A DNA stretch of 64,000 bases, from positions 186,001 through 250,000 of the forward strand of contig NZ_PQMG01000002.1 in NCBI RefSeq assembly GCF_008930665.1. Direction: 5' to 3'. A program made the position numbers and the translations under genes. The DNA comes from Corynebacterium sp. 74A. Lineage in GTDB: Bacteria > Actinomycetota > Actinomycetes > Mycobacteriales > Mycobacteriaceae. Positions within the stretch are counted from its first letter, which is position 1, and the number at the start of each line of letters is the position of its first letter. This document shows positions 1 to 21,506 of this stretch, in pieces. The notes beneath the pieces were generated by a model. It did no database searches. It was not told the DNA's origin and saw only the letters and a program-made list of their open reading frames with translations.

Positions 1-1
1 C

Positions 2-328: not shown

Positions 329-368
329 CCTCCACATCTCATCTTTATCCCCGCCCCGAGCGGTGCCT

Positions 369-647
369 TTAAGGCGAGTTTCTCAGCACTCCCCGAACAG
401 GACCGCGCGGGGCGGGTTTCTTCTGCGCTGGGCGCGGCCATGCCCGCTCTGCCGCATTCGCCGCCGGGCGCTGTGTGGCACTCGTATGCGGCGGGGTTGG
501 AGTGTGTTCTGCGCTGGTTCGCGCCTCGCGCCGGGCTTGGGCGGTGAGCTCATCGAGGGAGCGGGAAAACTCAGTTAGCCGCGCACTCGTGTGGCGCTGG
601 AAGGTCTCGAGGTGCCGGAGGAAATCGGGGTTCACGTTAGTCACCAC
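369..647 (-). CDS. Small basic protein, third gene of a putative type VII-linked operon
   Basis: This encodes 92 residues with a predicted helical N-terminus (roughly residues 8-45, rich in Arg, Glu and Leu) and a Pro/Arg-rich tail. It has no signal peptide, no membrane segment and no recognised domain. Its GTG start at 647 overlaps the stop of the upstream gene by seven bases, an arrangement typical of translational coupling, so it is probably co-expressed with the 493-residue protein and the small helical protein upstream. Function is unknown. The tight coupling suggests a chaperone, partner or regulator of the large protein, which is inference. The Pro-rich tail lies opposite GC-rich antisense frames, so only the overlap and codon pattern support it. 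Confidence 0.55.
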   Translation of the reverse strand: MVTNVNPDFLRHLETFQRHTSARLTEFSRSLDELTAQARREARTSAEHTPTPPHTSATQRPAANAAERAWPRPAQKKPAPRGPVRGVLRNSP

Positions 648-2122
648 GCACCTGCCTTGTGGGGCCAGCTGGTGTGCTCACTGTGTTCTCCTTCATCAGT
701 CGGTGGGGCGGCATCGGCGGCAGCTGCTACCGGCGCGGCAGCCTCGGCCGGCGATTCTGGTTGTGGCTCGGGCGGTGCCGATTCTGGGGCTGGGTCTGGG
801 GCTGCCTCCTGCGCCACGTTCTGCATGGCCACCTTCTGTGCCGGTGGCTCGGGTTCGGGCACAGCGGCGAGATCCTCCGGTGGGCAGGGATCGACCGGCT
901 GAGGCGCTTCTGGCTCGGGCTGCGGTGTGGGTGCAGGGTCGGCAGCCGGCGCAACCGGGGCGCAGGGTTGTTCCACCACTGGCGGGCACTCCACTACCGG
1001 TGTGGGCGGGCAGGCGCTGGGTGCTTGTCCAAGATGCGCGGATACCTCGATAGTGCCGGCTATAGCGGCCTCGAGGTGCGCATGAAGCGAGGCCTGAGCC
1101 TGTGCCACTCCGACGGCGGCGGCGCTGGCCATCGCCTGCCCCACCGTGAGTACCGAACCACTCACCAGCTGCCCGAGCTCAACGGCTGGGCACGGCGGTG
1201 CGGCGGCGGGAGCAGGTGCCGGTGGCGGGCTCGGTGGGGTCGCTGGGGTTTCTGGTACGCAGGGCTTAGGCGGCGTTGTCGGTGGCTGTGGCGGCGGCGC
1301 GGCTGACGCGGGCTCGCAGGCCGGGGCCGGTTGTGGGGCCGGCTGCGGCTCTACCGGCGGCGGCAGGGGCGCTGCCGCCGGCGCCGGTGCTGGCTGCGGT
1401 ACGGGAGTCTCCGTCACGCAGGGCTCCGGCTTCGCTACGGGCGGGGCGGCCGCGGGCTCACACGGCGGCTCCGGCTCACACGGTGGCGCGGACTCGCACG
1501 CGGCGGGAGCTTCGGTGGCGCAGTGCTGCTCGGCGTGGGCGATCAGCTCATCAAAACAGCCCGCCACGGCTGTGTCGTGATCGCCGAAGATACCCAGCAG
1601 CTGCTGGCCGGCGCTATCGATCAGCCCTGCGCCCATGTGCACTAATTGCTGCGCCAGACCGCGGGCACCGCTACTGCCCAGCAATTCGAGGGCGTGGCAC
1701 ACCGCGCGTACTGCCTCATCAAGGCTCAGCGTCATCGCCTGCGCCGCCTCATGGGCGCTGCTTCCGACCGCGTCGATGCTATCAGCGCAAGAATGCGCGG
1801 CCGCCTCTACTGCTGCGGCACCTTCTACCCGCTGCTCCCACTGCCGCATAGCCTCGCTCAGGCCGCCGCACATGGCCCCCTCGGCCACTCCGGCGAGAGC
1901 GGGGCTGAGCACCTCCTGCACCCAGCGGCTGGCGTCCTGCGGGGCGGATTCTCCTAGGGCGTAGCTCGCGGCTGTGCGTAGTGCGGAAGTATCCACACCG
2001 GCGAGATTCTCGGCGGCGGCGCTTAACTCCTCGGCGCTGATCTGCGGCCCGGTGTACAGCGGGCCCGCGGCCAGACGCAGCGCCTCCACCGTGGAGCCGT
2101 AGCAGGTCACGGAGCTGTTCAT
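641..2122 (-). CDS. Pro/Cys-rich protein, candidate type VII secretion substrate
   Basis: This 493-residue protein has three parts. Residues 1 to about 200 are Ala-rich and predicted helical. Residues ~200-320 are a low-complexity Pro/Ala/Glu/Cys tract with recurring CEP and PPCEP units. A short helical island near residues 325-375 (VSGSVLTVGQAMASAAAVG) is followed by a second Pro-rich tail. About 17 cysteines are spread through the chain, which is striking for a cytosolic actinobacterial protein and hints at disulfide formation outside the cell. There is no Sec or Tat signal. The start at 2122 overlaps the upstream gene by four bases (ATGA). The upstream partner looks like an EspC/WXG-type helical protein and the ESX-4 locus is 5 kb away, so export by type VII secretion is a reasonable inference. 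No family was recognised. A 150-bp copy of its 5' end lies at 21314-21461. Confidence 0.7.
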   Translation of the reverse strand: MNSSVTCYGSTVEALRLAAGPLYTGPQISAEELSAAAENLAGVDTSALRTAASYALGESAPQDASRWVQEVLSPALAGVAEGAMCGGLSEAMRQWEQRVEGAAAVEAAAHSCADSIDAVGSSAHEAAQAMTLSLDEAVRAVCHALELLGSSGARGLAQQLVHMGAGLIDSAGQQLLGIFGDHDTAVAGCFDELIAHAEQHCATEAPAACESAPPCEPEPPCEPAAAPPVAKPEPCVTETPVPQPAPAPAAAPLPPPVEPQPAPQPAPACEPASAAPPPQPPTTPPKPCVPETPATPPSPPPAPAPAAAPPCPAVELGQLVSGSVLTVGQAMASAAAVGVAQAQASLHAHLEAAIAGTIEVSAHLGQAPSACPPTPVVECPPVVEQPCAPVAPAADPAPTPQPEPEAPQPVDPCPPEDLAAVPEPEPPAQKVAMQNVAQEAAPDPAPESAPPEPQPESPAEAAAPVAAAADAAPPTDEGEHSEHTSWPHKAGAW

Positions 2123-2442
2123 CTGCCTTCACCTGCCTTATCGATGCGGTGCAGGGCGCTGGCCACCTCGTGGTCCTGCTCTGAGAGGGCGCGGAGATGA
2201 TCGCTGGCGGTATGCGTCGATAAGCGAGCTGCGTCTAAAGCAGTGGCGGTATCGGTGTGCAGTTGGGTGAAGACACGGGCGAGGGTTTCACCGCGTTCCC
2301 TCAGCCCCTTCCCCGCCGCGGCGGGCGGGAACTGTGGTGCGTGGCGCTGGTGCGCGCTCGTGTTCTCGGCGATAGTGCGGAGCAACTCGGCGGTATGCGC
2401 CAGCGCGGTTGGTGGATCGACATCTATGTCAGTGTGCGTCAT
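2119..2442 (-). CDS. Small helical protein, EspC/WXG100-like, first gene of the operon
   Basis: This encodes 107 residues that are mostly predicted helix, in two long segments (about 8-35 and 45-100), with no signal peptide, no membrane span and no Cys. Size, acidic/Ala/His-rich helices and the N-terminal VDPPTALAHTAELLRTIAEN segment resemble EspC-type (DUF2580) and other helical-hairpin type VII secretion targets, although no clear WXG turn is visible. The start at 2442 is chosen over the upstream ATG at 2454 because a GGGAGG sequence lies just before it. The gene leads a three-gene operon with four-base overlap to the next gene. A likely role is a partner that pairs with the Pro/Cys-rich protein for export; this is inferred from position and shape only. 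Confidence 0.6.
   Translation of the reverse strand: MTHTDIDVDPPTALAHTAELLRTIAENTSAHQRHAPQFPPAAAGKGLRERGETLARVFTQLHTDTATALDAARLSTHTASDHLRALSEQDHEVASALHRIDKAGEGR
2214..2226 (-). repeat. Dispersed 13-mer CGCTTATCGACGC, copy 1
   Basis: Exact copy (the motif reads on the minus strand) inside the small helical gene at 2119-2442, near its 3' half. See the finding on this motif. Confidence 0.6.
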
Positions 2443-2592
2443 AGCCTCCCCCATGCGAGGTCAAAGAAACGGCGGCGTGCACCCTGACAGGGCGCACCTT
2501 CTCACCGAGTTAGACGCACACTTACCCTTGGGAGGTTCCCGCGGCGCGGAAGTATTCTGCGCACCCCGCGGGAATGACGGCGGGAGGCGGGT

Positions 2593-3936
2593 TTAGACCT
2601 CAGCGACCACGGCGGCCAGACGACCGGCCACCTTTCGGGCCTGCTCCTCGTGGGCGGCCTCCACCATGACGCGGAAGAGATCCTCTGTGCCGGAGGCACG
2701 CAGCAGCACTCGGCCGGTGTCGCCCAGCTCCGCCTCAGCCTTGGTGATGGCCTCCTTAACCCGAGGATGATCCATGATTATGGACTTGTCCGAGACCGGA
2801 ACGTTGATGAGCATCTGCGGCAGCACCGTCATCACGGTGGCCAATTCCTTAAGGCTTGAGCCGGTTTCTGCCATGCGTGCCATGAGCGAAAGGCCGGTGA
2901 GTACGCCATCGCCGGTGGTTCCGTGATCGGGGATCACGATGTGGCCGGACTGCTCGCCGCCGAGGCTATAGCCGCTGCGGTTGAGCTCGGCGAGGACATA
3001 GCGATCGCCCACCTGGGTGGTGAGCACCTCAATGTCGGCGTCCTCCATGGCCAGCTTCAGCCCTAGATTCGACATCACTGTGGCCACCAGGGTGTTCTTA
3101 CGCAGCTCGCTATTGGCCTTCATCGCCACGGCCAGAATCGCCATGATCTGATCGCCATCAACGATGGTGCCCTCGGCGTCCACGGCGAGGCAGCGATCGG
3201 CGTCGCCATCGTGAGCCAAGCCAATATCGGCGCCGTGCTCGCGGACCGCGCGCTGCACCTCCTCGATGTGGGTGGAGCCGCAGCCATCGTTGATGTTGTA
3301 GGAATTCGGCTTGTGGTGAATCGGAATCACCTCGGCACCGGCGGCGCCATAGGCTAATGGGGCTACCTCGGCGGCGGCACCATTGGCGCAGTCCACCACC
3401 ACCTTGATCCCAGAGAGATCCTGCGGCACGGCCTGGGCTAGGTGCATCAGATAGCGTTCTTGGGCGTCCGAGGCTTCCTCAATCACGCGGCCAATACCGT
3501 GGCCGGTGGGGCCTTCGGCGGCGATATTGTCCATGCGGCGCTCGATCTCGTCCTCTACCTCATCGGGCAGTTTATGGCCGCCGTCGGAAAAGAACTTGAT
3601 GCCATTATCCGGCATGGGGTTGTGGGAGGCGGAGATCATCACGCCCATATCTGCGCCATAATCATCGGTCAAAAATGCCACCGCCGGGGTGGGGATCACG
3701 CCGACGCGCAACACGTCCACACCGCGCGATGCCATGCCCGCGGAGATCGCCGCGGCCAGCATCTCGCCGGAGACGCGCGGGTCGCGGCCCACGATGGCGA
3801 CGGGGCGGCGCTTGGAGTTGCGGTACTCCTTTGTCAGTACCTCCGCAGCCGCTGCACCGAGCTGCAGCGCCAAGGGGGCCGTCAGCTTCTTATTGGCTAA
3901 TCCACGTACACCGTCTGTTCCGAAGAGTCGAGTCAT
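2593..3936 (-). CDS. glmM: Phosphoglucosamine mutase GlmM
   Basis: GlmM interconverts glucosamine-6-phosphate and glucosamine-1-phosphate, the step that feeds UDP-GlcNAc for peptidoglycan and other envelope polymers. The 447-residue length is normal. The phosphoserine loop ([12 protein letters not shown]), the metal-binding loop (DGDADRC), the sugar-binding loop (GEQSGH) and the C-terminal phosphate-binding RASGTE motif are all intact. The family-typical start [12 protein letters not shown] is at 3936; a GTG fifteen bases upstream (3951) would give a five-residue extension and places the GGAGG at better distance, so the exact start is open. In mycolate actinobacteria glmM follows rpsI; here an oppositely oriented LOG-family gene sits between them. 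Confidence 0.97.
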
Positions 3937-4071
3937 TCCTCCATTATGCACGCTCGGCTACCCCGATCCCACGCCAGACATTCCCTTGCGGTGGTACTCA
4001 GACGTATGACCCGTGCCCATGCGGAAGCAGCTGCCCGTGCGCCGGGGCTGGCAGCTAGTAGCCTTGCAGCC

Positions 4072-5110: not shown

Positions 5111-5129
5111 CGGTGCCCCAGAAACGAGC

Positions 5130-5157: not shown

Positions 5158-5173
5158 GAAGAAGCGTTGGTGT

Positions 5174-7437: not shown

Positions 7438-7734
7438 CTAGCTCCAGCTAGCGGCAGCGCGGCGATTGACATCGCTCATACGCTCATTGCCTTCTGCCAC
7501 AGTGCGGGAGATGGTGGCCAAAATGGTGTTGATCTCCAGTGCGGCGGCATCCCACGCGCGCTGGGCTTCTTGGTAGGCGGAGGAGGACTCGCCTTCCCAC
7601 GCCGCGGTCATCGGCGCGATCTGGGCTTTGAGGTCCTCCAAGTTGCCGTTGATCTTGGCGGAGGTGGCGCGAATATCCTCAGCCGCTTGGCTGATGGCGC
7701 CGAATTGATAACGAATCGTGTCCATGAGTGGCAT
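7438..7734 (-). CDS. WXG100 family protein (EsxT/EsxU-like)
   Basis: This 98-residue helical-hairpin protein carries the WXG turn (AAWEGESSSAY, Trp ~46) that defines ESAT-6/CFP-10-type secreted proteins. It lies directly downstream of a second WXG100 gene, so the two products probably form the usual heterodimer and leave through the ESX-4 pore. No canonical YxxxD/E export signal is seen at its C-terminus, so the partner or a different tail must supply it. Start 7734 has AAAGG just upstream; an ATG at 7725 is also possible. It is the last gene of the minus-strand ESX run that starts with eccC at 13023. In the mycobacterial ESX-4 order its position corresponds to esxT. Confidence 0.9.
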   Translation of the reverse strand: MPLMDTIRYQFGAISQAAEDIRATSAKINGNLEDLKAQIAPMTAAWEGESSSAYQEAQRAWDAAALEINTILATISRTVAEGNERMSDVNRRAAASWS

Positions 7735-7796
7735 TAGCCTTTCTGTGTTGCGCTCTTATTAAGTGTGCTGATGCAGGCGAGTGGGATGCGGCGGCG

Positions 7797-8111
7797 CTAG
7801 AGCGCCAAGCCGCCACCCACCCGACGGAATGCGGTTTCGTTCTCGGTCTCGGAAACGTCGAAGGCGCGGGCGTTGGCGCGGATATTCTCCGAGATGGAGC
7901 TCAGCGCCTCCTGCAGCTGGCGTGCCGAGGCGTCCCAGCGGCTCATGAGATTGGTGAAAGCCAGCTGCGCGCTGCCTTGCCAGCTACCACCGATGGCGTC
8001 GACGGTGCCGCGCAGCCGAGCCAGCTCGGCCTGAACGTCGTGGTTGGTCTGATCCACCTTGCCTGCGGTGGCGACCATGGTCTGTGATTCTGTGCGAAAG
8101 TGCCCAGTCAT
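7797..8111 (-). CDS. WXG100 family protein (ESX-4 partner)
   Basis: This encodes 104 residues. The WXG turn is GGSWQGSAQLAF (Trp 44), flanked by two amphipathic helices. The start at 8111 (MTGHFRTESQ) is supported by an AAGGAG site seven bases upstream; a longer frame reaching 8249 lacks one. The gene sits between the Rv3446c-like gene and the other WXG100 gene, as esxU does in mycobacterial ESX-4. The C-terminal segment FDVSETENE loosely resembles the YxxxD/E type VII signal with Phe in place of Tyr; whether it works as one is unknown. The product should dimerise with the neighbour. Confidence 0.9.
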   Translation of the reverse strand: MTGHFRTESQTMVATAGKVDQTNHDVQAELARLRGTVDAIGGSWQGSAQLAFTNLMSRWDASARQLQEALSSISENIRANARAFDVSETENETAFRRVGGGLAL

Positions 8112-8301: not shown

Positions 8302-9387
8302 CTAAAAAAGCTTCTCCCCATCGCCGGTGGTGTTATCGCGGTGCTCGAGACTATCCACCGCCATGCGGCAGCTGGCGGTATGCGCATGGCTGGGCTGATG
8401 CCGCGAATGACAGCCCACGCTGATCAAGGTGTCCTGCTCTACCCAGGCGGTCCAGCGCACCAGCGAGCCATCGCCTGGTTCTTCGATATAGCTGGTCTGG
8501 GCGGGCTGCCCGTGCCGGCGAAATACGGCCGCCTCGGTGCGCAGTGTCTCATCCACGGCCACCATCGCCTCTACCTCGGCGATCACCGCCTCCGGCGACA
8601 CAGAATAGACCTCATCGAAGGAGATGAGGATGCGCAGTTCGGGATCCGCACCGTTGAGCTGAAAGCTACTGTCCCCACGGTCACTAATCTCGAATCCCTC
8701 CGGGGTGCGCACCCGCACTGGGCCGCGCTCTACCACTATCTCTCGCGGCGCCGCAGCGCTTGTCGACGCCTCCTCCCCGGCATTGTCACTCGGCGGCGGG
8801 CTGGAACCCGGCTGCTCCGGTTCCGCCACGGTGCGCACCGGCGCCGGCTCCAAGGACTGCCGGGTAGACCACCAACTCACCCCCACCACGAACAGCACCA
8901 CTGCCACGATGCCCACGCTAAAGAGATTGACCCGCTCCAGCAGCCGGGCGATGCCGCCACCGTGGAGAGAGCGGCGGCGCACGCCCTGTGGCGGCTGCGG
9001 CCACGGGCCGTCCTCGGGCTCCGGTTGCGGCGCCGCAGTAGATCGCAGCGCGGTGGCGGGCGGGGCGGGTGGCGCTGCAGGCGCGGTGGGCTCGGACGCT
9101 TCGACTGGCTCGGGTGGCGGCTCGCCATAGCGCCAGGCCCGCACGCGGGCGGTGTGACACTGCTCCAGCAGGCACTCGCCGGGTTCTTCGGCGGCATCGA
9201 TGATCACCTCGACCTGCGGCCACTGGCTACCGGTCAGATCCCGCAGCTCGGAGACTAAGCGGCGGGCCTGATCGGGCTCGCTTAAGGCGGCGGCGCCGAG
9301 ATCATAGAAGTAGTGCGCTTTAGCGGTGGTTGCCTCGACCACGATGGTGAGCGCATCGGTGACGGAGACTTCCCAACGGGGCATCAT
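8302..9387 (-). CDS. Type VII secretion-associated protein, Rv3446c family
   Basis: This 361-residue protein is placed, as in mycobacterial ESX-4, between eccC and the WXG100 genes. Residues 1-90 form a globular cytoplasmic part, ~90-145 are Pro-rich, 152-174 are a single membrane segment (VNLFSVGIVAVVLFVVGVSWW), then a Pro/Ser-rich linker and a ~150-residue extracytoplasmic domain (from ~210) that corresponds to the C-terminal domain of the Rv3446c family. Its role in secretion is not established. The ATG (9387) follows the eccC stop with no gap, so the genes are coupled. A second ATG comes directly after the first. Confidence 0.85.
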   Translation of the reverse strand: MMPRWEVSVTDALTIVVEATTAKAHYFYDLGAAALSEPDQARRLVSELRDLTGSQWPQVEVIIDAAEEPGECLLEQCHTARVRAWRYGEPPPEPVEASEPTAPAAPPAPPATALRSTAAPQPEPEDGPWPQPPQGVRRRSLHGGGIARLLERVNLFSVGIVAVVLFVVGVSWWSTRQSLEPAPVRTVAEPEQPGSSPPPSDNAGEEASTSAAAPREIVVERGPVRVRTPEGFEISDRGDSSFQLNGADPELRILISFDEVYSVSPEAVIAEVEAMVAVDETLRTEAAVFRRHGQPAQTSYIEEPGDGSLVRWTAWVEQDTLISVGCHSRHQPSHAHTASCRMAVDSLEHRDNTTGDGEKLF

Positions 9388-12300
9388 TTAGTCACTCACC
9401 ACCTGAATGAGTCCTTCGGCACTGCCGCCGCGGATCAACTGGGCCCGACCCGGCGCGAGGGTGGCGGGCCGCGCCCCGAAGAGCGGGCCCTCGTCTTTAT
9501 CACTGTCGAAGAGCAGCACCAGCGGCGAGGAGTCCTTCAATTCCGCGAGTCCAGGCGCAAAGAAGGCACGGGAGGCGCCGCCGGATTTGCGGGCGTAGAT
9601 CAGGTGCAGGCCGATATCGGCGGCGTGCGGGAGCAGGGGCGCGAGCGGATCGAGTAGCCCGTGCGGCAGCAGCTCGGCGTCGTCGATAAGCAGATATAGC
9701 TCGGGCCCGCTCCACCAGGAACGTTGAAGCAGCTGCTGCGGGGTGATGTCTTCGCTGGGTAGGCGCTGGCGCAGCGTGGTGCAGAGATCGCTAATGAGGC
9801 TGCGGCTGGCGTCGGTAGTGCCGCTATAGCCGGCCAGCATGTGCTCGGGGAATGCCCCGAGGTGGCGGCGGCGATGATCGATCACCAGCAGCCGCACCTG
9901 CTCATGCGGCAGCTGTGCGAGGTGGCGGCCCACGACCTTGAGCAACTGGGATTTGCCGCAGCCCTTGTTGCCGAGGGCAATCACGTGCTGGGTGTCGCTG
10001 AAGTCCACCGCCACCGGCTCGAGTCGGGCCCCGCCCAAGCCCAGTAGCACCTGCTCGGAGTCGGGCAGGCTGGCGGCCGGCAGGCTAAGAGGCAGGGTTT
10101 TCAGCGCCGGCACGGCCGCCATGCCGGCTTCCTCGCTCTGCCGGGCCACATGGGCGATGTCTTGGGCGCTGGATTGGGCGATGAGGATATTCTCCCCTGC
10201 CGCGTTGAGTCCTCGGCCGGGCAGGGCGGGGAGTTTTTCTTGGCGGCGGCGATCGATCACTGAGTCCATGGCCTCGGGCAGACGCAGCTCATAGCGTTGG
10301 CCGATGAGATCCCGCACCGATGGCCGCAGGGCGGTCCAGCGGGAGGTAGAGATCACCAGATGCACCCGCGCCGCGAGGCCCTCGCTGGCGATGCGCTGCA
10401 GGCTCGGGGTGAGCTCCTCGAAGTCGGTGGTGAGTGCCTGCCAACCGTCGATAAGCAAAAAAGTGTGGCGCTGCTCCGGCTCATCGATAAAACCGAGCAC
10501 CTCATCCACCACGCGGGCGATGGTTTCTTCCTGCTCGCGGCCAGCCACCCCAGCGGTGTGTGGGAGGCGAGTGAGGGTGCCGAGCCCGCCGCCGCCGAGG
10601 TCCAGAGCGTACACGCGTAGCGTCTCGGTGCTGTGGGTGGAGGCGAGCGCGGTGGCGATGCTACGCAGCATGGTGGTTTTGCCGCTCTGCGGCCCGCCGC
10701 AGACGGCCACATGCCCGTTTTGGCCGGTGAAGTCCACCACGAGGGGATCTTGGCGCTGCTCATAGGGGCGATCGATCACGCCCACCGCAGCACGTAGGGG
10801 GCCGAGATCCTCCACCACCCCGCCGAGCGGGATGGCAGCGGGCAGCGGATCCAGCCACACCTTGTGCGCCTTCAGCCCCAGCTGGGCGGCGCGGGCGGTG
10901 GTGAGTTCCACGGTGAGATCCACGAGCGTCTGGGTACTCGAGGGGCCCTGCTGCGAGCTGGCGCTGGCGGCGGGCAGGCGCGGCTCGGGCAGGGTATCGG
11001 CGCGGGTATCGAAGCGGCCCACCCGCACGATCGCCTCCGCAGCGGGGCTGGTACTGGCGCTGACCGGGCCGGAGACATAGCTTGCTTGGAAGCCGCGCAC
11101 CTCGGCGGCATCGGCTTTGATGAAGCCACGGCCGGGTTGATTGGGCAGCTCATAGGCGTCCGGCACGCCGAGCACGTGGCGGGATTCCATGGCCGAGAAG
11201 GTGCGCAACCCAATGCGGTAGCTGAGGTGCGAGTCCAGCCCGCGCAGCCGCCCCTCCTCCAGGCGCTGGCTGGCGAGCAGCAGGTGGATGTGCAGGGAGC
11301 GGCCCAGCCGGCCGACGGCGGCGAAGAGATCGGCGAAGTCGGGATGCTGGCCGAGCAGCTCGGAGAACTCATCGATCACGATCACCAGCGCCGGCATCGG
11401 CTCGGTGCCAGCTGCGGCCGCGGCGGCGTTGAAGGCCTCCACATTGGGCACGTTGCCGGCCGCGCGCAGTACTTCTTGGCGGCGGTTCATCTCCCCAGAG
11501 ATGGCGTCGCTCATGCGCTCTACCAGATCAGCCTCGGCGTGCAGGTTGGTGATCACTGCGGAGGTGTGCGGCAGGCCATCGAGGCCGAGGAAGGTGGCGC
11601 CGCCTTTGAAGTCCACCAGCACAAAGTTCAGCTCCGCTGGGGAGTGGCTAAGGGCAAGAGAGACCACGAACGTGCGCAGGAGCTCGGATTTTCCCGATCC
11701 GGTGGCACCGATACACAGCCCGTGCGGCCCCACCCCGCCGTGGGCGGATTCTTTGATATCGAGCAGCAGCGGCTGACCATCGCTTCCCACACCGATGGGC
11801 ACGTTGAGGCGGGTGGGATCGCCTGGGGCGCGAGGCGCCCACAGGGTCTCGGCGCGCACATGCTCTTGCTCGTGGTAGCCGAGCAGCGGCAGGAGCTCTC
11901 CCGAAGGAGCGGTGCTGTGCCGCTCTGGCCGGTCGTGGGGATGAAGGGCCTTGGCCAGGCAGGTGGCCTCGGCGATGCTGAGGGTATCGGGCACCCCGAT
12001 GGTTTCCTCGCCGCCGAGAATCGAGACCACCAGCGCGGCATCGGCGTGCAGGATCAGCCCGTCATTGAAGGCTGCCTCATACAGCGGCGTGGCCTGGTGG
12101 GCGTCGATGGCGATAATGAGATCCCAGCGGCGCGAGCCCACGAGGTGGGCGGGCTGCTCGGCATCGTCGATATCCACGATGAGTACCCGGCAGGCGGCCT
12201 CGCTGGGAGTGCGGGTGTGCGGCAACCATTTTAGCCACTGCCACTCCCCCTCGGCGGCGGCAGCGGCGCGGGTGCCGCTGAGCACCTCGATGCCGATGGC

Positions 12301-13023
12301 CTCGGGCCCGTGGTGAAAGACCAGTTGGGCGATGAGTGCCCGCGCGAGAGCCCGGGCCTTTTCCCCGTGCAGCGAGAGCACGCTGAACGAGCCCACCTGC
12401 ACCACCAGTGGCATGGCGGGCACGGTGTCCACGGCGGTCACCATGTGGCGCAGCGCCACCGCGCACACCGGGTCAAGGTCCTCGGTGGCGTTGATGTTGT
12501 GTAATTCGATCGGCGTGCAGAGCGCGGTGGTGCCACGCCCGATGCGCACCTCCCCCACATCGGGATCGCCGAGGCTACGCTCCCACATCCGCGGCGAGCC
12601 GGCGGCGGCGTAGAGCGCCTTCGGATCGGGGTGGCGGTGCAGCTCGTGGGCGCGCTGCGCGGCGGCGTTGTTCAGCGCGGCGCGGCGAACATGCGAGAGA
12701 TGCCGCAGATAGGTGCGGCGGGTGTCATCGCTGTCCTCGCCACCCTGGGGCATAAACATCGCCAGCATCGAGGCGCCCATCATCAGCGGAAAGAGCAGCA
12801 TCATGGGATTAAGCTGCCGTTCTCCGGTGAGCATCAGCGCCACCATGCCCACCATGGCCAGCACCATCACCACCGGGATGATGATGCGCACCAGCGGCAC
12901 CGGCTGCCGCGTCGGGGCATCCGGTACGGCTTCCGGCTGGATGCTGCCGCTGGGCAGCGGTGGTGCCGCGATCCGCTCGATCGCTCTGGTTTCTTCTACT
13001 GCCTGCGGAAATGCGACAGCCAT
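9388..13023 (-). CDS. eccC: Type VII secretion ATPase EccC (ESX-4 type), FtsK/SpoIIIE family
   Basis: EccC is the motor that recognises WXG100 substrates and drives export. The 1211-residue protein has two N-terminal membrane segments (about residues 45-95), then three FtsK-like ATPase domains. Domain 1 has Walker A GATGSGKSELLR (~439) and an intact Walker B ending in IDEFSELL (~549). Domain 2 has CGGPQSGKTTMLR (~774) and LLIDGWQ, lacking the catalytic Glu. Domain 3 has GNKGCGKSQLLK (~1017) and LLIDDAELL. This fits the general rule that domain 1 is the active motor while domains 2-3 bind substrate. The three domains are fused in one chain, unlike EccCa/EccCb systems. Start 13023 follows a GGGGGAG site. 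It leads the minus-strand ESX operon. Confidence 0.96.
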   Translation of the reverse strand: MAVAFPQAVEETRAIERIAAPPLPSGSIQPEAVPDAPTRQPVPLVRIIIPVVMVLAMVGMVALMLTGERQLNPMMLLFPLMMGASMLAMFMPQGGEDSDDTRRTYLRHLSHVRRAALNNAAAQRAHELHRHPDPKALYAAAGSPRMWERSLGDPDVGEVRIGRGTTALCTPIELHNINATEDLDPVCAVALRHMVTAVDTVPAMPLVVQVGSFSVLSLHGEKARALARALIAQLVFHHGPEAIGIEVLSGTRAAAAAEGEWQWLKWLPHTRTPSEAACRVLIVDIDDAEQPAHLVGSRRWDLIIAIDAHQATPLYEAAFNDGLILHADAALVVSILGGEETIGVPDTLSIAEATCLAKALHPHDRPERHSTAPSGELLPLLGYHEQEHVRAETLWAPRAPGDPTRLNVPIGVGSDGQPLLLDIKESAHGGVGPHGLCIGATGSGKSELLRTFVVSLALSHSPAELNFVLVDFKGGATFLGLDGLPHTSAVITNLHAEADLVERMSDAISGEMNRRQEVLRAAGNVPNVEAFNAAAAAAGTEPMPALVIVIDEFSELLGQHPDFADLFAAVGRLGRSLHIHLLLASQRLEEGRLRGLDSHLSYRIGLRTFSAMESRHVLGVPDAYELPNQPGRGFIKADAAEVRGFQASYVSGPVSASTSPAAEAIVRVGRFDTRADTLPEPRLPAASASSQQGPSSTQTLVDLTVELTTARAAQLGLKAHKVWLDPLPAAIPLGGVVEDLGPLRAAVGVIDRPYEQRQDPLVVDFTGQNGHVAVCGGPQSGKTTMLRSIATALASTHSTETLRVYALDLGGGGLGTLTRLPHTAGVAGREQEETIARVVDEVLGFIDEPEQRHTFLLIDGWQALTTDFEELTPSLQRIASEGLAARVHLVISTSRWTALRPSVRDLIGQRYELRLPEAMDSVIDRRRQEKLPALPGRGLNAAGENILIAQSSAQDIAHVARQSEEAGMAAVPALKTLPLSLPAASLPDSEQVLLGLGGARLEPVAVDFSDTQHVIALGNKGCGKSQLLKVVGRHLAQLPHEQVRLLVIDHRRRHLGAFPEHMLAGYSGTTDASRSLISDLCTTLRQRLPSEDITPQQLLQRSWWSGPELYLLIDDAELLPHGLLDPLAPLLPHAADIGLHLIYARKSGGASRAFFAPGLAELKDSSPLVLLFDSDKDEGPLFGARPATLAPGRAQLIRGGSAEGLIQVVSD
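9681..9691 (-). repeat. 11-base core of the dispersed motif, in eccC
   Basis: GCTTATCGACG core inside domain 3 of eccC, where CTT ATC GAC encodes Leu-Ile-Asp of the Walker B strand. One flanking base differs on each side from the 13-mer. Confidence 0.5.
10446..10456 (-). repeat. 11-base core of the dispersed motif, second copy in eccC
   Basis: Same core, here encoding Leu-Ile-Asp of the domain 2 Walker B strand (LLIDGW). Confidence 0.5.
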
Positions 13024-13385
13024 ATCTCAAACTCCCCCCGTAGCACGGATACTGGCTGCACCCGGCGCGCAGGCATGTCCCCCATCCCCGCGCCGCATGC
13101 ATGATCGACGTCGCCCGCTCGCTCAGCCCCACCGGAACAGCGGTGCTCGGCCGCTGCTCCGGTGCGCCTCGAGTGGACACGGCACTGATCCTAAGCCAAG
13201 CTGATGGGCACTGCAGGCCAAAGGTTTCGCGTCTGCAGCTCGCCAGCACCCCATGGAGGGTGGAGGGGGAGATGGTTCGGGGGAACCATCGCAGCAGCAC
13301 TCGACGCCGTCGTGCGCGCGAGCACCGCTATCTCTCTGTGCCGTCTGTGGGCGTGATCGTGTTATCTACTCAGGGGGAATTTCTT
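13024..13385. promoter_or_regulatory. Divergent control region of the ESX-4 genes
   Basis: The 362 bases between the divergent eccC and eccD genes must hold both promoters. An open frame continues upstream of eccD through this region but its composition is unlike a protein domain and no EccD homology is seen before the GTG at 13386. A GGGGGA ribosome-binding site precedes that GTG. I could not pick a convincing -35/-10 pair or a regulator box. Confidence 0.5.
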
Positions 13386-14813
13386 GTGACGCTGTCACTT
13401 CACTCACCATCGGCGCCGCCGCACGAGCCGCGCCCCGCCACCACGGCGGTGACCACCACCATCCGTCTCGACGTGCCGGAGCAGCCCGAGCGCAATCGTC
13501 AGCTCGATATTGTGTTGCCGCCGCGTTCCTCACTGGCGGAGGTGCTCGATGAGGTCTTAGATCTCCTCGATGCGCCGAGCATCAGCGTGCCCTGGCAGGG
13601 GCGCACCGCCGCAGGGGTGCCTATCGACGCCACCCGGCCGCTGCACACCGTGCCCTTCCTGCATGGGGGCGTGCTGGTGCTCGGGCCGTATGAGCAGCAC
13701 GCCGCGCCGGTGGTCAAAGACACCGCCCATGCGCTTGCCGACGCCGCCAGCACCCCCTGCCGGCGCGGCCTCGATACGCTACCGCTGCTGGTGGCGGGCC
13801 TAGTAGTGTGTCTCGGCGCGGTGGCCGCACCGCTGAGTGCCACCGCAGTGGCGTGGTGGGGTGCCAGCCTCGCGCTGGCGGCCAGCGCAGTGGCCCTGCG
13901 GGCGCGCCGCCGGCTCAACCCAGAGGCCACCGCCTGCTATATGGGCATTGCCCAGCTCAGCGCAGCGATAGCCGGGGCCAGCGCCGCCCAGCAGCGCGGC
14001 GTGGAGGCCCTCGCGCTCTCGAGCAGTGCCGCGGGGTGGACTCTGGTGGCTGCTGCGGGTGGACTGGCCGCCGCCACCGCCCTCGGCGCGAAGACCCTGC
14101 ATATTCGGCACTGTGCCGCGGCGATCACCACGGTCGCCCTGCTGACGGTGTGCGGCGGGTTGCTGGCCGCGAGCGGCGAGTGGGTGGCTGCCAGCGCCGG
14201 CACCATCGCGATGGCCATGGTGGCTATGAGCGCCGCGCCCAGTGTGGCACTGAAAGCCGCGGGTCTCCGGGTGCCGCTGATCCCCTCGGCCGGCCAGGAC
14301 CTCGAGGTGGCCGATCATACGATCGCCGAGCCGGAGAAGAAGGCCCGGCGAACTGCGCAGATCCTGGGTGGTTTCTACCTTGGGCTCACGGTGGTACTGA
14401 GCCCGCTGCTGCTGGTGCTCGCCCAGCGCGCCGATGCCTTCGCCCTCGCCTTGGTGGCCTGCACCGTGGGGTCCGTGGTGGTGCATGCCGCCCGTCATCA
14501 CGATGTCTGGAGCATGTGGGCGTTGTGGGTCTCTAGCTGCGCCGGGATGGCCGCGCTCGCGCTATGCGCGCTGCGTATGGCCACCGCGGAGCTTGCCGGC
14601 CAGGGCTCGTGGATTATCTGGCCGTTGGTGCTCGCCGGGGCTGTGCTCGCGCTTGCGGGCGCCGCTCCCCTACTCACTGGGCCGCTATCCACCATGGAGC
14701 CCACATGGCAGCGGCGCCTCGAGCGAGTGGAGCACATCGCATTGGCCGCCATCATTCCGCTCTCCGCGCACCTCATGGGCATATTCACCGCGATCCGCAC
14801 CTGGGGATGGTAG
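13386..14813 (+). CDS. eccD: Type VII secretion integral membrane protein EccD (ESX-4 type)
   Basis: EccD forms the large membrane vestibule of the ESX inner-membrane complex. The 475-residue product starts at a GTG preceded by GGGGGA. Residues ~24-105 form the ubiquitin-like (YukD) cytoplasmic domain (TTTIRLDVPEQPERNRQLDI). From ~125 on there are about eleven hydrophobic segments, the standard EccD count. The frame is open back to 13101, but that extra part shows no homology to EccD. The stop is three bases before the mycP start, so the two are co-transcribed. Confidence 0.93.
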   Translation: MTLSLHSPSAPPHEPRPATTAVTTTIRLDVPEQPERNRQLDIVLPPRSSLAEVLDEVLDLLDAPSISVPWQGRTAAGVPIDATRPLHTVPFLHGGVLVLGPYEQHAAPVVKDTAHALADAASTPCRRGLDTLPLLVAGLVVCLGAVAAPLSATAVAWWGASLALAASAVALRARRRLNPEATACYMGIAQLSAAIAGASAAQQRGVEALALSSSAAGWTLVAAAGGLAAATALGAKTLHIRHCAAAITTVALLTVCGGLLAASGEWVAASAGTIAMAMVAMSAAPSVALKAAGLRVPLIPSAGQDLEVADHTIAEPEKKARRTAQILGGFYLGLTVVLSPLLLVLAQRADAFALALVACTVGSVVVHAARHHDVWSMWALWVSSCAGMAALALCALRMATAELAGQGSWIIWPLVLAGAVLALAGAAPLLTGPLSTMEPTWQRRLERVEHIALAAIIPLSAHLMGIFTAIRTWGW

Positions 14814-14816
14814 GTC

Positions 14817-16034
14817 GTGATGCGCTTCGTGTGTCCCCTGATGGCCGCCGTGCTGCTCGTCGGCTGCGCCCCTCTCACCGTCGCCCAGGACTCGCCGCCC
14901 GCGCCGGATGCCCCAGACATTGCCTGCGCTCAGCCCGTGCAGATCAGCGACTCCGCTGGCGATCGTACCGCGTGGGATGAGGCTGTACGACGCTCCCTCG
15001 CCCTCCGCGATACCCACCAGCACGCCACCGGTGCCGGGGTAAAAGTCGCCGTGGTCGATACCGGGGTGGCGCAGCATCCACGCCTGCGCATGACCCCAGA
15101 TGCGGATTTTATCCATCCCGAACAGCCGCGCGCGGATCATGATTGTGACTCCCACGGCACCGTGGTGGCGGGGATCATCGGTATGCTCCCCGACCCGAGC
15201 AGCGATGAACTCACCGGCATCGCCCCGGATGCTGAGATCCTCAGCATCCGCCACACCAGCACCCACTATCGCAGCCCGCAGCGCAGCAGCAGCGGCAATC
15301 TCGCGAATCTCGCCGAGGCTATCCACGCGGCCATCGACGCCAAAGCGGATGTGATCAACGTGTCGGTGGTGTCCTGCGTCTCTCCCGCCCGCGCCGCGGG
15401 GCTGAACACGCAAGCACTCCGCGCTGCGGTACGACGGGCGGAGGCCAGCAACGTCGTGGTGGTCGCCGCGGCCGGCAATGTCTCCGAGAAGTGCTCACCC
15501 GGCGATGTGGTGTATCCGGCGCATCTGCCCACCGTGATCGCGGTCAGCGCCGTCGATCACTCCACGCGCAGCCTCGCCGACTACGCACTCCCCGCCGCCG
15601 AGGACACTGGGCTGCGGCTCAGCGCCAAGGGCGATGTGCCCATAGCCCTGCACTCGGAAGGAAGCGGCCTCGCCTCTGGGGTATATGGCGACGAAGGGCA
15701 AGTACACGGCTATAGCGGCACCAGCTTCGCCACGCCGGTGGTCTCTGGCACCGTCGCACTCCTGCTGCAGCGCGACCGCCACGCCAGCCCCGCGGAGATC
15801 CGGGCGCGACTGGCCGCCATCGCCGACCCGGCGCGGGGTGAATTCGATATCCACGCCGCGCTCACTCACCTCGATCTCGATACCCGCACCACCGCAGCGG
15901 AGCGGGATATCACCATCCGCACCGTGCAGAGCGATCCCACCCGCAGCCGGGTGGCGATCATGGCAGCGGTGGCCCTCGCCGCGATCGCACTCCGCGCCAT
16001 CATCCGCGGCTGGCACAGCGACCACGAGGCCTAA
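14817..16034 (+). CDS. mycP: Mycosin-type subtilisin protease MycP (ESX-4)
   Basis: Mycosins are membrane-anchored subtilisin-like proteases that stabilise the ESX complex and process some substrates. The 405-residue chain has an N-terminal hydrophobic segment with a lipobox-like LVGC (Cys 17), the catalytic triad Asp 81 (VAVVDTGV), His 113 (DSHGTVVAGI) and Ser 303 (YSGTSFATP), and a C-terminal membrane anchor (about 377-397) followed by a short basic tail. All triad residues are present, so it should be active. A GTG at 14817 and an ATG at 14820 are equivalent starts. It is coupled to eccD and convergent with eccB. Confidence 0.95.
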   Translation: MMRFVCPLMAAVLLVGCAPLTVAQDSPPAPDAPDIACAQPVQISDSAGDRTAWDEAVRRSLALRDTHQHATGAGVKVAVVDTGVAQHPRLRMTPDADFIHPEQPRADHDCDSHGTVVAGIIGMLPDPSSDELTGIAPDAEILSIRHTSTHYRSPQRSSSGNLANLAEAIHAAIDAKADVINVSVVSCVSPARAAGLNTQALRAAVRRAEASNVVVVAAAGNVSEKCSPGDVVYPAHLPTVIAVSAVDHSTRSLADYALPAAEDTGLRLSAKGDVPIALHSEGSGLASGVYGDEGQVHGYSGTSFATPVVSGTVALLLQRDRHASPAEIRARLAAIADPARGEFDIHAALTHLDLDTRTTAAERDITIRTVQSDPTRSRVAIMAAVALAAIALRAIIRGWHSDHEA

Positions 16035-16035
16035 A

Positions 16036-16080
16036 AACCCTCGCCCCTCGCCCACAGGCTGAGGCGAAGGGCAAGGGGTT
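16036..16080. terminator. Bidirectional hairpin between mycP and eccB
   Basis: An imperfect ~17-bp GC-rich stem (16036-16052 with 16063-16080) lies between the convergent genes, immediately after the mycP stop. Read on the minus strand it is followed by TTTTTAG, the better terminator direction. Confidence 0.7.
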
Positions 16081-17422
16081 ACTTATAGCGCTGAGCTATT
16101 CCTCTTATATTGCGATGCGCGGGAGCGCGGGCCGCTTCAAAAGACAGCACCTCGCCCTCCGGCAATAACGACACCACCGACCATGAGGCCGCCGTGGTGG
16201 ACTCCACGCCCACCACCGCTAACTCTTTGCCCGAGGGCACCGCATGCCGCCGCCCCGTCTCCGAGATCACATGCGTGCCCTGGGCGGTATCCACCCCAAA
16301 AGCCAAGCCCGAGCGCTGCTCATCCTCATAGGCCGGACGGTAATGGGTGGCATGGGCACCCAACACGGGGATCGAACCCTCCAGCGCGCCCATCCGCACC
16401 CCAGGGCCGCGCTGTGTACCCGCCGAGCACACCGCCGCTGGATGCGACTCCGGCGCGCCGAGGAAGGGGGCGTCGATAAGCGAATACGGGCGACGCAGCA
16501 GCTGCAGTGTCTGCCCACTATCGCCGAAACCACTGATGTCCTCCCGCGTGCGCTCGCGCGTCCGCGCCCCCAGTTGCACGAGAATGCTGCGTTGCGTGTC
16601 CGTGAGCTCTATCAGGCCCTCGCGGCGGATGAGATAGGCGGCCCCGCCCACATCCGCGATCTCCCACGGGCCCGAGGGCACCGCGAAATCCGGCAGCGCA
16701 TGAACAGTATTCAGCCACGTACTGGAGGTCTCCACCACCGGAGTGTCTCTATCCACCCCCACTGCCTGGCGGGTAGCGGCCCCCAGCTCATCACGCGCAA
16801 AAGGCAACCGGCGACGCCCCTCGGAGGTAATCAACCACTGCGTACCGCGCTCATCGCGGGCCACAAACGCCTCCTCCTCCCCCAGCGGCCGATACTCAAT
16901 CCCCGAGCCCACGTGCAGCTCATCACTACGCACCTCGTGGCAGGCCACCAAAGGCTGCTCCGGCGCCGTGTCCGCCACGGCCGACGGCGCCACCCCGATG
17001 CCCACCTCATGCGCGAAACGCTGCGTGGCCAGCACCGCATCCGAAATCCGCGCTGGGGTGGCGGCCTCGCCCACCACCAGCCGTGCCGAAGCCAAATTAG
17101 TTACGGGATGAACGCCCTCCTCGGAGCGCACATAGAGCGCCCCCGAATCGGCCACCATGATCGGCGCCTCCCCTGGATCGCGCTGCGGCGAAAATAACGC
17201 CATCGCGCCGGCGCCCAACCCCACCACCACAGCCGCGGCAGCACCAAAGGCCAGCGCCTTATTCCGCGCCCCGAGCGGATCGTGGATCATTCGAATATCG
17301 CCCATCACCGCCCCGAGCTCGGCGCGACGGAGCAGAAACTTATAGCCGCTCACCTGCGCCTGCGTGGTGGGCTGCAGGATCGACCGCAGCGGCTGATGGT
17401 GTGTATCGGAGTGCTCACCCAT
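16079..17422 (-). CDS. eccB: Type VII secretion protein EccB (ESX-4 type)
   Basis: EccB is the single-span component whose large external domain sits above the ESX membrane complex. The 447-residue product starts with the characteristic cytoplasmic segment (QPTTQAQVSGYKFLLRRAEL, residues 17-36), has a membrane span at about 56-77, then the long extracytoplasmic domain with its two conserved cysteines (ACHEV and AAVCSAG). Start 17422 gives the usual EccB N-terminus; the open frame to 17476 adds a non-homologous stretch. Together with eccC, eccD and mycP it completes the core set. eccE is absent, as is normal for ESX-4. Confidence 0.94.
   Translation of the reverse strand: MGEHSDTHHQPLRSILQPTTQAQVSGYKFLLRRAELGAVMGDIRMIHDPLGARNKALAFGAAAAVVVGLGAGAMALFSPQRDPGEAPIMVADSGALYVRSEEGVHPVTNLASARLVVGEAATPARISDAVLATQRFAHEVGIGVAPSAVADTAPEQPLVACHEVRSDELHVGSGIEYRPLGEEEAFVARDERGTQWLITSEGRRRLPFARDELGAATRQAVGVDRDTPVVETSSTWLNTVHALPDFAVPSGPWEIADVGGAAYLIRREGLIELTDTQRSILVQLGARTRERTREDISGFGDSGQTLQLLRRPYSLIDAPFLGAPESHPAAVCSAGTQRGPGVRMGALEGSIPVLGAHATHYRPAYEDEQRSGLAFGVDTAQGTHVISETGRRHAVPSGKELAVVGVESTTAASWSVVSLLPEGEVLSFEAARAPAHRNIRGIAQRYK
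16470..16482 (-). repeat. Dispersed 13-mer, copy in eccB
   Basis: Exact CGCTTATCGACGC on the minus strand, encoding Leu-Ile-Asp within the external domain of EccB. Confidence 0.6.
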
Positions 17423-17733
17423 GTGGCACCAGACTCCTCCCCCGAGAATGACTATTAGGACCGCGCCCTCGCACACACACTCACGCGAAAGCCTCTAGGT
17501 GGCTTTTCGACGCACCCCGTCCCCGACGGGTGCTGATGGCCTCAAGGCCTGCAGATTCTGTGCTGTGTACCTGCGCTGAGCGACGCTGCTCTCACTTTAA
17601 ACGCTGCGCAGGCGGGGTGCAGGGTGAGGACAGCGCGTGCTCTCCTGTACTCACTGAATCATTCCCCAGAGCTCTACCCCCGCCCGGTATTCTGCAGAGG
17701 TTGGAGTACTCAACCATCTTGTGGAGGAACACT
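17423..17733. promoter_or_regulatory. Divergent intergenic region with a hairpin
   Basis: The 311 bases between eccB and the SHOCT gene hold the promoters of both. A hairpin lies at about 17512-17533 (GCACCC and GTC paired with GAC and GGGTGC, one bulged C), not followed by a T-run on either side. No gene was recognised. Confidence 0.45.
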
Positions 17734-21313: not shown

Positions 21314-21461
21314 CGCCAGCGATCATCTCCGCGCCCTCTCAGAGCAGGACCACGAGGTGGCCGGCGCCCTGCACCCCATCGATATGGCAGAGGAGGGTAG
21401 ATGAACAGCTCCGTGACCTGCTACGGCTCCACGGTGGAGGCGCTGCGTCTGGCCGCAGGCC
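21314..21461 (+). pseudogene. Displaced fragment of the Pro/Cys-rich operon (junction of its first two genes)
   Basis: This ~148-bp stretch is about 90% identical to the minus strand of 2063-2209. It contains the last ~27 codons of the small helical gene (SDHLRALSEQDHEVAGALHP) and the first ~19 codons of the Pro/Cys-rich gene (MNSSVTCYGSTVEALRLAAG), with the same stop/start overlap region. Homology ends abruptly after the Ala-Gly codons. It points the opposite way to the original. Neither reading frame is complete, so it is a relic of a second copy or a recombination scar. Confidence 0.8.
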
Positions 21462-21506
21462 TGCTGCTGTCAACGGGTGGATCCGAATACGTTCTTTTAA
21501 AAGGGA

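What the first reader, a model, noticed from the sequence alone, without database searches (positions are those of the whole stretch)
369..2442. Operon encoding a Pro/Cys-rich putative secreted protein with two small partners, next to ESX-4
Three translationally coupled genes encode a helical small protein, a 493-residue protein with about 17 Cys in low-complexity Pro-rich tracts, and a basic small protein. None matches a family I know. The first resembles EspC/WXG-type partners, and the ESX-4 machinery lies 5 kb away. A Cys-rich, signal-less protein of this type would be an unusual type VII cargo, and ESX-4 substrates outside WXG100 proteins are poorly known. The secretion role is inference.
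Basis: partly seen in the sequence, partly recalled or inferred. Interest (0 to 1): 0.65.

Follow-up and report, generated by a model that had tools for sequence, protein, structure and literature searches.

The report
Likely ESX-4 cargo operon beside glmM
Three neighbouring bacterial genes, in what is probably a Corynebacterium, may make a protein and its helpers that leave the cell through an ancient secretion machine encoded next door, whose cargo is still largely unknown.

Summary
The operon is real. On the minus strand, directly behind glmM, lie three overlapping genes: A (107-111 aa), B (493 aa; 17 Cys, 85 Pro) and C (91-92 aa). It is a conserved unit: a B relative matches in 108 of 151 genomes of the genus, and where B and a strong eccC hit share a contig they lie within 30 kb (92 of 92). 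The same slot behind glmM in Mycobacterium holds an EspC-family gene (10 of 10 tested match PF10824, 8 above cut-off; YxxxD/E in 15 of 15) and a large protein (match in 115 of 118 genomes, some decayed; WxG invariant in 16 aligned). Profile comparison links A to such small proteins (E 1.7e-9); B is linked mainly by position. By position the pair corresponds to M. tuberculosis Rv3440c-Rv3439c. New here: B ends G-x-W (29 of the 30 best-scoring relatives; KAGxW in 27), resembling the tail of the adjacent ESX-4 WXG100 protein and suggesting an EccC4-read export signal. Outside the genus this resemblance mostly fails. Best explanation: a resident ESX-4 export module. Export is not shown. Rv3439c is reported to bind the Rip1 PDZ domain, a rival or complementary role.

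The parts
2119..2442 (-). gene A, 107 aa (111 aa from the ATG at 2454): EspC-like helical hairpin partner
   Evidence: ORF; A relative in 16 of 16 aligned loci; AF2 hairpin, pLDDT 90; profile match to small proteins in the same slot of other genera
641..2122 (-). gene B, 493 aa: large Pro/Cys-rich protein, proposed ESX-4 cargo
   Evidence: ORF; profile match in 108 of 151 genomes of the genus
1508..2122 (-). B residues 1-205: conserved, predicted helical domain
   Evidence: alignment A4; AF2 model of the L024 homologue, pLDDT 84, helices 85-149 and 156-202
662..1507 (-). B residues 206-487: low-complexity Pro/Ala/Cys-rich linker
   Evidence: sequence, composition and Cys count
1106..1168 (-). 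B residues 319-339: moderately hydrophobic segment, in the linker like the TM-like segment of 10 of 15 relatives; not TM-like in the window
   Evidence: Kyte-Doolittle scan: window 1.47, 10 of 15 relatives above 2.0
644..661 (-). B C-terminal tail HKAGAW, proposed export signal
   Evidence: G-x-W end in 29 of the 30 best-scoring relatives, unfiltered; resembles tail of the adjacent WXG100 protein
369..647 (-). gene C, 91-92 aa basic protein, C-terminal RGPVRGVLR (RGxVxGVLR-like in most relatives)
   Evidence: a frame of 55-140 codons starts at the B stop in 16 of 16 loci; alignment of 10
2593..3933 (-). glmM, the syntenic anchor (not part of the module)
   Evidence: tblastn against relatives
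7438..7734 (-). ESX-4 WXG100 protein next to rplM (EsxT position, recalled), C-terminus RRAAASWS
   Evidence: PF06013 E 3e-18; tails of relatives
7797..8111 (-). second ESX-4 WXG100 protein; probably the counterpart of C. glutamicum ExsI (it has Glu8 and Met12)
   Evidence: PF06013 E 1.3e-18; residues named
8302..17476 (.). rest of the ESX-4 locus: Rv3446c-like gene, eccC, then genes read as eccD, mycP, eccB (the last three named from gene order and sequence look, not searched)
   Evidence: TIGR03931 E 1.9e-34; ORF list; eccC relatives
21314..21466 (+). 153-bp fragment, 94% identical to the A/B junction: remnant of a second copy
   Evidence: blastn; genome search

Best explanation
A-B-C is a resident cargo module of the ESX-4 type VII secretion system. 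A is an EspC/WXG100-type helical hairpin that pairs with the helical N-terminal domain of B. B carries a short C-terminal tail (KAGxW) that EccC4 reads much as EccCb1 reads the EsxB tail. The helical end is handled as a folded unit, the long disordered Pro/Cys-rich part follows, and B ends up in or across the cell envelope, where in many species a Gly-rich hydrophobic segment could hold it in a membrane and Cys pairs could cross-link it. C is a small basic helper, perhaps a chaperone that stays inside. Shown: the operon, its conservation, its linkage to ESX-4, A as an EspC relative by relay, the conserved tail and its resemblance to the tail of the neighbouring WXG100 protein within this genus. 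Inferred: A-B pairing, EccC4 recognition, export, final place, and everything about C.
For: Position: in 13 of 17 stretches around hits, glmM, rpsI, rplM, both WXG100 genes and eccC recur in this order, with A, B and C behind glmM. Co-occurrence in 151 genomes of the genus: B and eccC 103, B only 5, eccC only 31, neither 12 (Fisher p 1.6e-4); with strong eccC hits only, 96/12/19/24 (p 3e-8); on one contig in 92 of 96, always within 30 kb, median 8.8 kb. Four of the five 'B only' genomes hold a divergent, split or fragmentary eccC on the contig of B within about 20 kb. A: profile match to the small proteins in the same slot of other genera, prob 96.3, E 1.7e-9; Mycobacterium versions match PF10824 in 10 of 10, 8 above cut-off, with YxxxD/E in 15 of 15 (read by eye). 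B-like proteins of other genera: invariant W and nearly invariant G two residues on in 12, WxG invariant in 16 Mycobacterium proteins; TIGR03930 E 4.3e-5 in one, below cut-off. Tail: G-x-W in 29 of the 30 best-scoring of 108 B, unfiltered, KAGxW in 27; in 224 ORFs of 250 or more codons, W in the last two residues with A three before it occurs in 13, all B; the adjacent WXG100 protein ends AAASWG in 11 of 13 relatives and AMNSWG or AANSWG in two, and RRAAGIWAR, RRAAGAWGR or SAAGAWHG in three Mycobacterium stretches. EccC ATPase3 reading a C-terminal tail is solved for ESX-1, with pockets that differ among systems (PMC6954902, passages).
Against: No secretion data exist here or in the passages seen. 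B of this genus does not reach WXG100 in Pfam (16 members) or, for two tested, NCBIfam, and its profile link to the B of other genera is weak (prob 12.8, E 0.0023). A of this genus matches no T7SS family directly (0 of 16), and against the Mycobacterium-only profile the score is modest (prob 37.7, E 3.4e-4). 31 of 134 eccC-positive genomes have no B hit, 19 of them with a strong eccC, and one glmM region of the genus without the operon was seen (L095). The tail differs between genera (KAGxW; ELPQ[AV]GQ; AEAGPL; LAGDR), and outside this genus it mostly does not resemble the tail of the local WXG100 protein: that protein has W near its end in 9 of 12 stretches with a hit (of 20 fetched), while the B tails seen there lack W, except L079. 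The tail comparison is post hoc. Structure searches gave no significant hit.
Confidence: 0.62

Rival explanations
1. B is an adaptor of the site-2 protease Rip1 rather than a secreted cargo. Its C-terminal tail binds the PDZ domain of Rip1 and tunes regulated intramembrane proteolysis, as reported for Rv3439c (Ppr2). A and C support its folding or localisation, and the ESX-4 neighbourhood is only shared envelope context.
For: By position B corresponds to Rv3439c: Rv3441c is GlmM (PMC3414508, search listing and passages) and Rv3440c and Rv3439c are the next two on that strand by locus number (naming convention, recalled). A review says a two-hybrid screen with the Rip1 PDZ domain found Rv3439c = Ppr2 (PMC6963305, passage). 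A short conserved C-terminal peptide is what PDZ domains commonly bind (recalled).
Against: Only a two-hybrid report seen second-hand. The PDZ domain of such proteases lies outside the cytoplasm (recalled), so B, which has no Sec signal by eye, would still need an export route. Rip1-type proteases are far more widespread than B (recalled), whereas B tracks eccC.
Confidence: 0.12
2. A-B-C is a non-exported accessory of ESX-4: a cytosolic or inner-membrane-bound scaffold, chaperone or gate that docks on EccC4 through the B tail and helps the WXG100 pair out.
For: TM-like segment in 10 of 15 relatives; tail similar to that of a WXG100 protein of the same locus; basic partner C; linkage to eccC.
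Against: The EspC-family membership of A in Mycobacterium, with the motif YxxxD/E, points to a substrate; long Pro/Cys-rich linkers are odd in the cytosol; window B itself lacks a clear TM segment.
Confidence: 0.16
3. The operon serves cell-wall precursor synthesis with glmM, and its nearness to ESX-4 is inherited gene order only.
For: It follows glmM, a wall-precursor gene; the glmM neighbourhood is a stable gene block.
Against: In G026 no glmM lies in the 19-kb stretch around the operon, yet eccC is about 20 kb away; the EspC relationship of A; association of presence with eccC.
Confidence: 0.07

Closest known systems
Rv3440c-Rv3439c (Ppr2) and the pair behind glmM in Mycobacterium
   Same: same slot directly behind glmM; small helical protein next to a 427-542 aa Pro-rich protein; C-terminal ...KAGQ or ...QAGQ in several species against ...KAGQW in this genus
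   Different: Mycobacterium A is a PF10824 member and B has WxG; fewer Cys; tail ends in Q, E, R or G, no terminal W; C was not searched for there. Rv3439c itself was not compared, because its sequence was not obtained
EspC family (PF10824; partner of EspA in ESX-1, recalled)
   Same: about 100 aa, predicted helical hairpin, encoded before a large protein, hydrophobic-xxx-D/E after the second helix
   Different: A of this genus is not detected by PF10824; link only through relatives
EsxF-EsxE-CpnT of M. tuberculosis (ESX-4 dependent)
   Same: small WXG100 genes and one large envelope protein in one operon, export needing ESX-4 (PMC8593097, passages)
   Different: no enzymatic domain recognised in B; A is single; this module sits next to ESX-4
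LXG effectors with Lap partners and EsaD-EsxBCD (T7SSb)
   Same: small partners bind the transport domain of a large protein (PMC10653861, abstract); LapD2 and the TelA-LXG/Lap complex appear among the structure matches
   Different: no sequence link tested; Bacillota systems; matches are not above the helical background
EsxB C-terminal signal read by EccCb1 ATPase3
   Same: short C-terminal tail with Gly and a terminal aromatic residue; recognised by the EccC motor (PMC6954902, passages)
   Different: LxxxMxF there, KAGxW here; recognition by EccC4 is inference

Membership tests
EspC family PF10824 | Pfam match above gathering score | tested here: not met
   0 of 16 A of this genus; in the same slot of Mycobacterium 8 of 10 meet it, and L086 too
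EspC family PF10824 | profile relationship to members or to their slot-mates | tested here: met
   A1 vs A5 (12 small proteins from several genera, of which L086 passes PF10824) prob 96.3, E 1.7e-9; A1 vs Mycobacterium-only A8 prob 37.7, E 3.4e-4
EspC / WXG100 superfamily | helical hairpin fold | tested here: inconclusive
   AF2 hairpin, pLDDT 90; PE25, EsxA and CFP10-ESAT6 among the first Foldseek rows, but none with E below 0.001, and VIA-align Z about 8 is within the helical background
T7SS substrates | YxxxD/E motif after the last helix of one partner | tested here: inconclusive
   15 of 15 Mycobacterium A; in this genus D/E is kept in 16 of 16, but Tyr is there in one, another hydrophobic residue in 14 and Ala in one (read by eye)
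WXG100 | W-x-G between the helices | tested here: not met
   A and B of this genus lack a conserved WxG; B-like of other genera has it
ESX-4 substrate | export lost in an eccC or eccD mutant | not testable with these tools
   no such data for this gene in the passages seen
ESX-4 substrate | encoded near ESX-4 and co-occurring with it | tested here: met
   31 of 134 eccC-positive genomes lack a B hit
Ppr2 (Rv3439c) | sequence relationship to Rv3439c | not tested
   the M. tuberculosis sequence was not obtained (the 80 loci kept are other mycobacteria); equation by position only
Ppr2 (Rv3439c) | binding to the Rip1 PDZ domain | not testable with these tools
   reported for Rv3439c in a review passage
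PPE-like large partner | fold of PPE41 | tested here: inconclusive
   PPE41 rows at VIA-align Z 7.7 and 7.6 among BAR domains at Z 8 to 10

The most novel reading that the evidence does not exclude
The module is the ancestral dedicated cargo of ESX-4, kept behind glmM across Mycobacteriales, and its export is driven by a genus-tuned C-terminal tail read by EccC4, which in this genus copies the tail of the neighbouring WXG100 protein. In mycobacteria the exported protein (Rv3439c/Ppr2) then docks by its tail on the outer PDZ domain of Rip1, so that a type VII system would feed a regulator to a site-2 protease.
Probability: 0.12. Interest if true: 0.82.

Novelty: new variant of a known kind. Interest (0 to 1): 0.6.

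Why it matters
ESX-4 is regarded as the ancestral mycobacterial type VII system (PMC12607788, passage), yet beyond its WXG100 pair and CpnT I know of few substrates; [quoted passage not shown] This operon gives a conserved candidate that can be tested in non-pathogenic C. glutamicum, which has a single, ESX-4-like locus. It also gives a concrete hypothesis for how ESX-4 may select cargo (a C-terminal KAGxW tail) and would place two M. tuberculosis genes, Rv3440c and Rv3439c, in a secretion pathway. In the 5.39 million held papers Rv3439c occurs in 5 and Rv3440c in 1; the two terms do not occur in PMC4791881 or PMC8593097 on ESX systems. Other ESX-4 papers were not searched for them one by one, and subscription papers are mostly not held.

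Tried and rejected
Chance or shadow ORFs: rejected by conservation, overlap pattern and dN/dS (L028/L035: A 0.23, B 0.19, N-domain of B 0.025; L021/L024: A 0.38, B 0.54, N-domain of B 0.60, C 0.22; L025/L034: A 0.24, N-domain 0.10, whole B saturated). Direct family assignment: Pfam on all members gave only scattered weak hits. An order-wide profile search with the B domain found 6 of 249 genomes at E 0.01, four of them outside the genus and weak, so synteny was used instead. Rfam: 0 matches in 1-9000. Promoter and terminator scan: nothing above shuffles. Structure search: no Foldseek hit at E 0.001 for either model. Other proteins with an AGxW end in the own genome: 58 pattern hits; the 19 with a real stop were all read and only B ends an open frame above 90 codons. 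The idea that the terminal W is a by-product of the overlap with the C start was rejected, since in many relatives the overlap is TAATG or TGATG, which starts after the W codon, and residues before W are conserved too. Search for the Rv3439c sequence in named genomes: 80 mycobacterial loci kept of 168, M. tuberculosis not among them.

Circularity and selection noted: the B frames were picked partly by their G-x-W end, so the full conservation of that end in alignment A2 is not evidence; the counts quoted come (the 30 best-scoring of 108 matches, no filter on the end; opposite-strand shadow frames dropped; 29 of 30 G-x-W, of which KAGxW 27, KVGQW 1, NAGGW 1; the exception L162 is a short frame of 248 residues; L024 fell out by the overlap rule). 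Several of the 30 are from species already used. A3 of C used 10 of 16 loci, those found by a motif rule; one search looked for a frame of 55-140 codons at the B stop without a motif and found one in 16 of 16. A5 and A6 used 12 each of the 29 glmM regions outside the genus; an A-like plus B-like pair was seen by eye in at least 16 of 29 (the latter's output cut), others (for example L074, L077, L082, L083, L104) showed none. The p values treat related genomes as independent.
Full report
1. What is there. The window is bases 186001-250000 of contig C4 of a 2.46 Mb genome. On the minus strand three genes overlap: A 2119-2454 (or from 2442), B 641-2122, C 369-647. They follow glmM (2593-3933). 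B has 17 Cys, 85 Pro and 111 Ala. The ESX-4 locus begins 5 kb away with two WXG100 genes (PF06013 E 3e-18 and 1.3e-18), an Rv3446c-like gene (TIGR03931 E 1.9e-34) and eccC. No Pfam or NCBIfam family is met by A, B or C.

2. It is a conserved operon. A protein search of 61 genomes found a match to B in 18, 17 of them of the genus, the window's own included; the hits in G022 and G047 cover only the low-complexity part. Seventeen 19-kb (one 18-kb) stretches around hits were taken. In 13 of 17, glmM, rpsI, rplM, the two WXG100 genes and eccC recur in the same order; L029 shows glmM only, L030 only B, and the second-site or low-complexity hits L036 and L037 none of these genes. Reading the frames behind glmM gave A, B and C. 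A frame of 55-140 codons starting at the B stop was found in 16 of 16 loci including the window. Alignments: A 16 rows, mean column identity 40%; B 16 rows, 29%; C 10 of the 16, 34%. dN/dS for three pairs is below 1 wherever it could be computed, 0.025 for the B N-domain of the closest pair.

3. It goes with ESX-4. In 151 genomes drawn from the genus, the B domain profile matched in 108 at E 0.001 and EccC in 134 at E 1e-100. Both 103, B only 5, EccC only 31, neither 12: Fisher p 1.6e-4. With strong EccC hits only: 96, 12, 19, 24, p 3e-8. Genomes are related, so these p values overstate independence. B and strong eccC lie on one contig in 92 of 96 genomes, always within 30 kb, 89 within 20 kb, median 8.8 kb; in the other four they lie on different contigs of assemblies in many pieces. 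Of the five 'B only' genomes, G013, G030, G512 and G514 have a divergent, split or fragmentary eccC on the contig of B within about 20 kb; the fifth (G490) is 77% complete. Nineteen genomes with a strong eccC have no B hit; whether B is lost there or too divergent was not settled, and one glmM region of the genus (L095) lacks the operon. In G026 no glmM was found in the 19-kb stretch around the operon, but eccC lies about 20 kb away.

4. The same slot in other genera. glmM was located in 60 of 61 genomes of the family, and regions behind it were taken for 29 genomes outside the genus. At least 16 of 29 show, by eye, a small frame overlapping or abutting a large, mostly Pro-rich frame. Twelve small and twelve large proteins were aligned: the large ones share an invariant W and a nearly invariant G two residues on. 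A of the genus against these small proteins gave prob 96.3, E 1.7e-9; the B domain against the large ones gave prob 12.8, E 0.0023 over 161 columns. Thus A is well linked, B weakly by sequence and mainly by position. In the genus of G061, identified as Mycobacterium because records so named match its B, the large protein matches in 115 of 118 genomes at E 1e-6, some only in part; two genomes of 3.27 Mb, one with the recalled size of M. leprae, hold copies with stops. Mycobacterium A proteins match PF10824 in 10 of 10, 8 above cut-off, and carry YxxxD/E in 15 of 15. Sixteen aligned Mycobacterium B keep WxG and end TPC[ED]IAA..., mostly ELPQ[AV]G, some ELPKAG, then Q, E, R or G.

5. The tail. 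In the 30 loci kept (the best-scoring of 108), read without any filter on the end, 29 true-strand B frames end G-x-W, 27 of them KAGxW. The window ends HKAGAW. The adjacent WXG100 protein next to rplM ends AAASWG in 11 of 13 relatives with a hit and AMNSWG or AANSWG in two; the window has RRAAASWS. In 20 stretches from other genera, 12 gave a hit: 9 have W near the end (for example AAANSWA, AAASWM, RRAAGIWAR, RRAAGAWGR, SAAGAWHG) and 3 do not. Aligned on W, B and this protein mostly share A at -3 and a basic residue four to six places before W; Mycobacterium forms also have G at -2, as B does. In 224 ORFs of at least 250 codons from 21 stretches, 21 have W in the last two places, 17 of them B; 13 also have A three before it, and all 13 are B. 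In the own genome no other open frame above 90 codons ends AGxW. For ESX-1 the motor EccCb1 binds the EsxB tail LxxxMxF, a G99A change is said to abolish binding, and pockets differ among systems (PMC6954902, passages). I infer that the B tail is an EccC4-read signal. Against this: the comparison was made after seeing the tails, and outside the genus the B tails seen (AEAGPL, LAGDR, ELPQVGQ and others) lack W, except in L079, so they do not match the local WXG100 tail.

6. Structure. The B domain of L024 models as long helices (pLDDT 84), A of the window as a hairpin (pLDDT 90). Searches gave no significant hit; type VII proteins (PE25, EsxA, CFP10-ESAT6, PPE41, Lap proteins) are among the rows but so are unrelated helical proteins. 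A TM-like segment above 2.0 is in 10 of 15 relatives of B, not in the window copy (1.47).

7. Literature. C. glutamicum has one T7SS, ESX-4-like, which secretes the WXG100 protein ExsI (Cgl0579), an iron-binding effector (PMC12607788, abstract, passages and section 7). In M. abscessus, EsxT secretion is strongly reduced without EccC4 and partly without EccC3, and further ESX-4 substrates are said to be unidentified (PMC11791044, passages; EsxU/EsxT as ESX-4 substrates, PMC9401124, listing and a passage). CpnT export needs ESX-4 in M. tuberculosis (PMC8593097, passages), while another study names CpnT an ESX-5 substrate (PMC8092274, search listing only). Rv3441c is GlmM (PMC3414508, listing and passages), so Rv3440c and Rv3439c fill the A and B places by number. 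Rv3439c is called Ppr2, a partner of the Rip1 PDZ domain, in a review (PMC6963305, listing and passage); the primary paper was not held. PMC10202637 was searched for Ppr1 and related terms without a hit; of PMC10653861 only the abstract and outline were seen.

8. Verdict. Most likely an ESX-4 cargo module (0.62). New variant of a known kind: an EspC-type partner plus a large protein, with a Pro/Cys-rich linker, a recognisable tail and a third gene, resident at ESX-4.

Noticed in passing
window 21314-21466 (+): 153-bp fragment, 94% identical to the A/B junction, followed by unrelated sequence: remnant of a second operon copy or of a rearrangement. A translation nearby on the minus strand looks to me like the start of an Abi-type protein (recalled); Pfam gave no hit for a 54-residue stretch there.
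   Followed up: partly
window 7797-8111: The second WXG100 protein carries Glu8 and Met12, the positions discussed for iron binding in C. glutamicum ExsI (Met12 was critical there), so iron binding may be shared.
   Followed up: no
L023 and L031, C gene: The C protein ends STSW in L023 and KTAGW in L031, the latter an AGW end a little like that of B.
   Followed up: no
G013, G512: eccC looks split or reduced to a fragment near a still present B gene; ESX-4 may be decaying there.
   Followed up: no
L133, L134: Two Mycobacterium genomes of 3.27 Mb, by size probably of the leprosy group (recalled), hold decayed copies of B.
   Followed up: no
L079 (genus g71, 1.9 Mb genome): The large protein behind glmM ends SHAGRW, the only tail outside the window's genus that I saw with the AGxW form; the WXG100 protein of the same genome ends RRAAASWM (L256).
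   Followed up: no
window 4072-5070 (+): Fusion of a NUDIX-like and a LOG/lysine-decarboxylase-like domain between glmM and rpsI.
   Followed up: no
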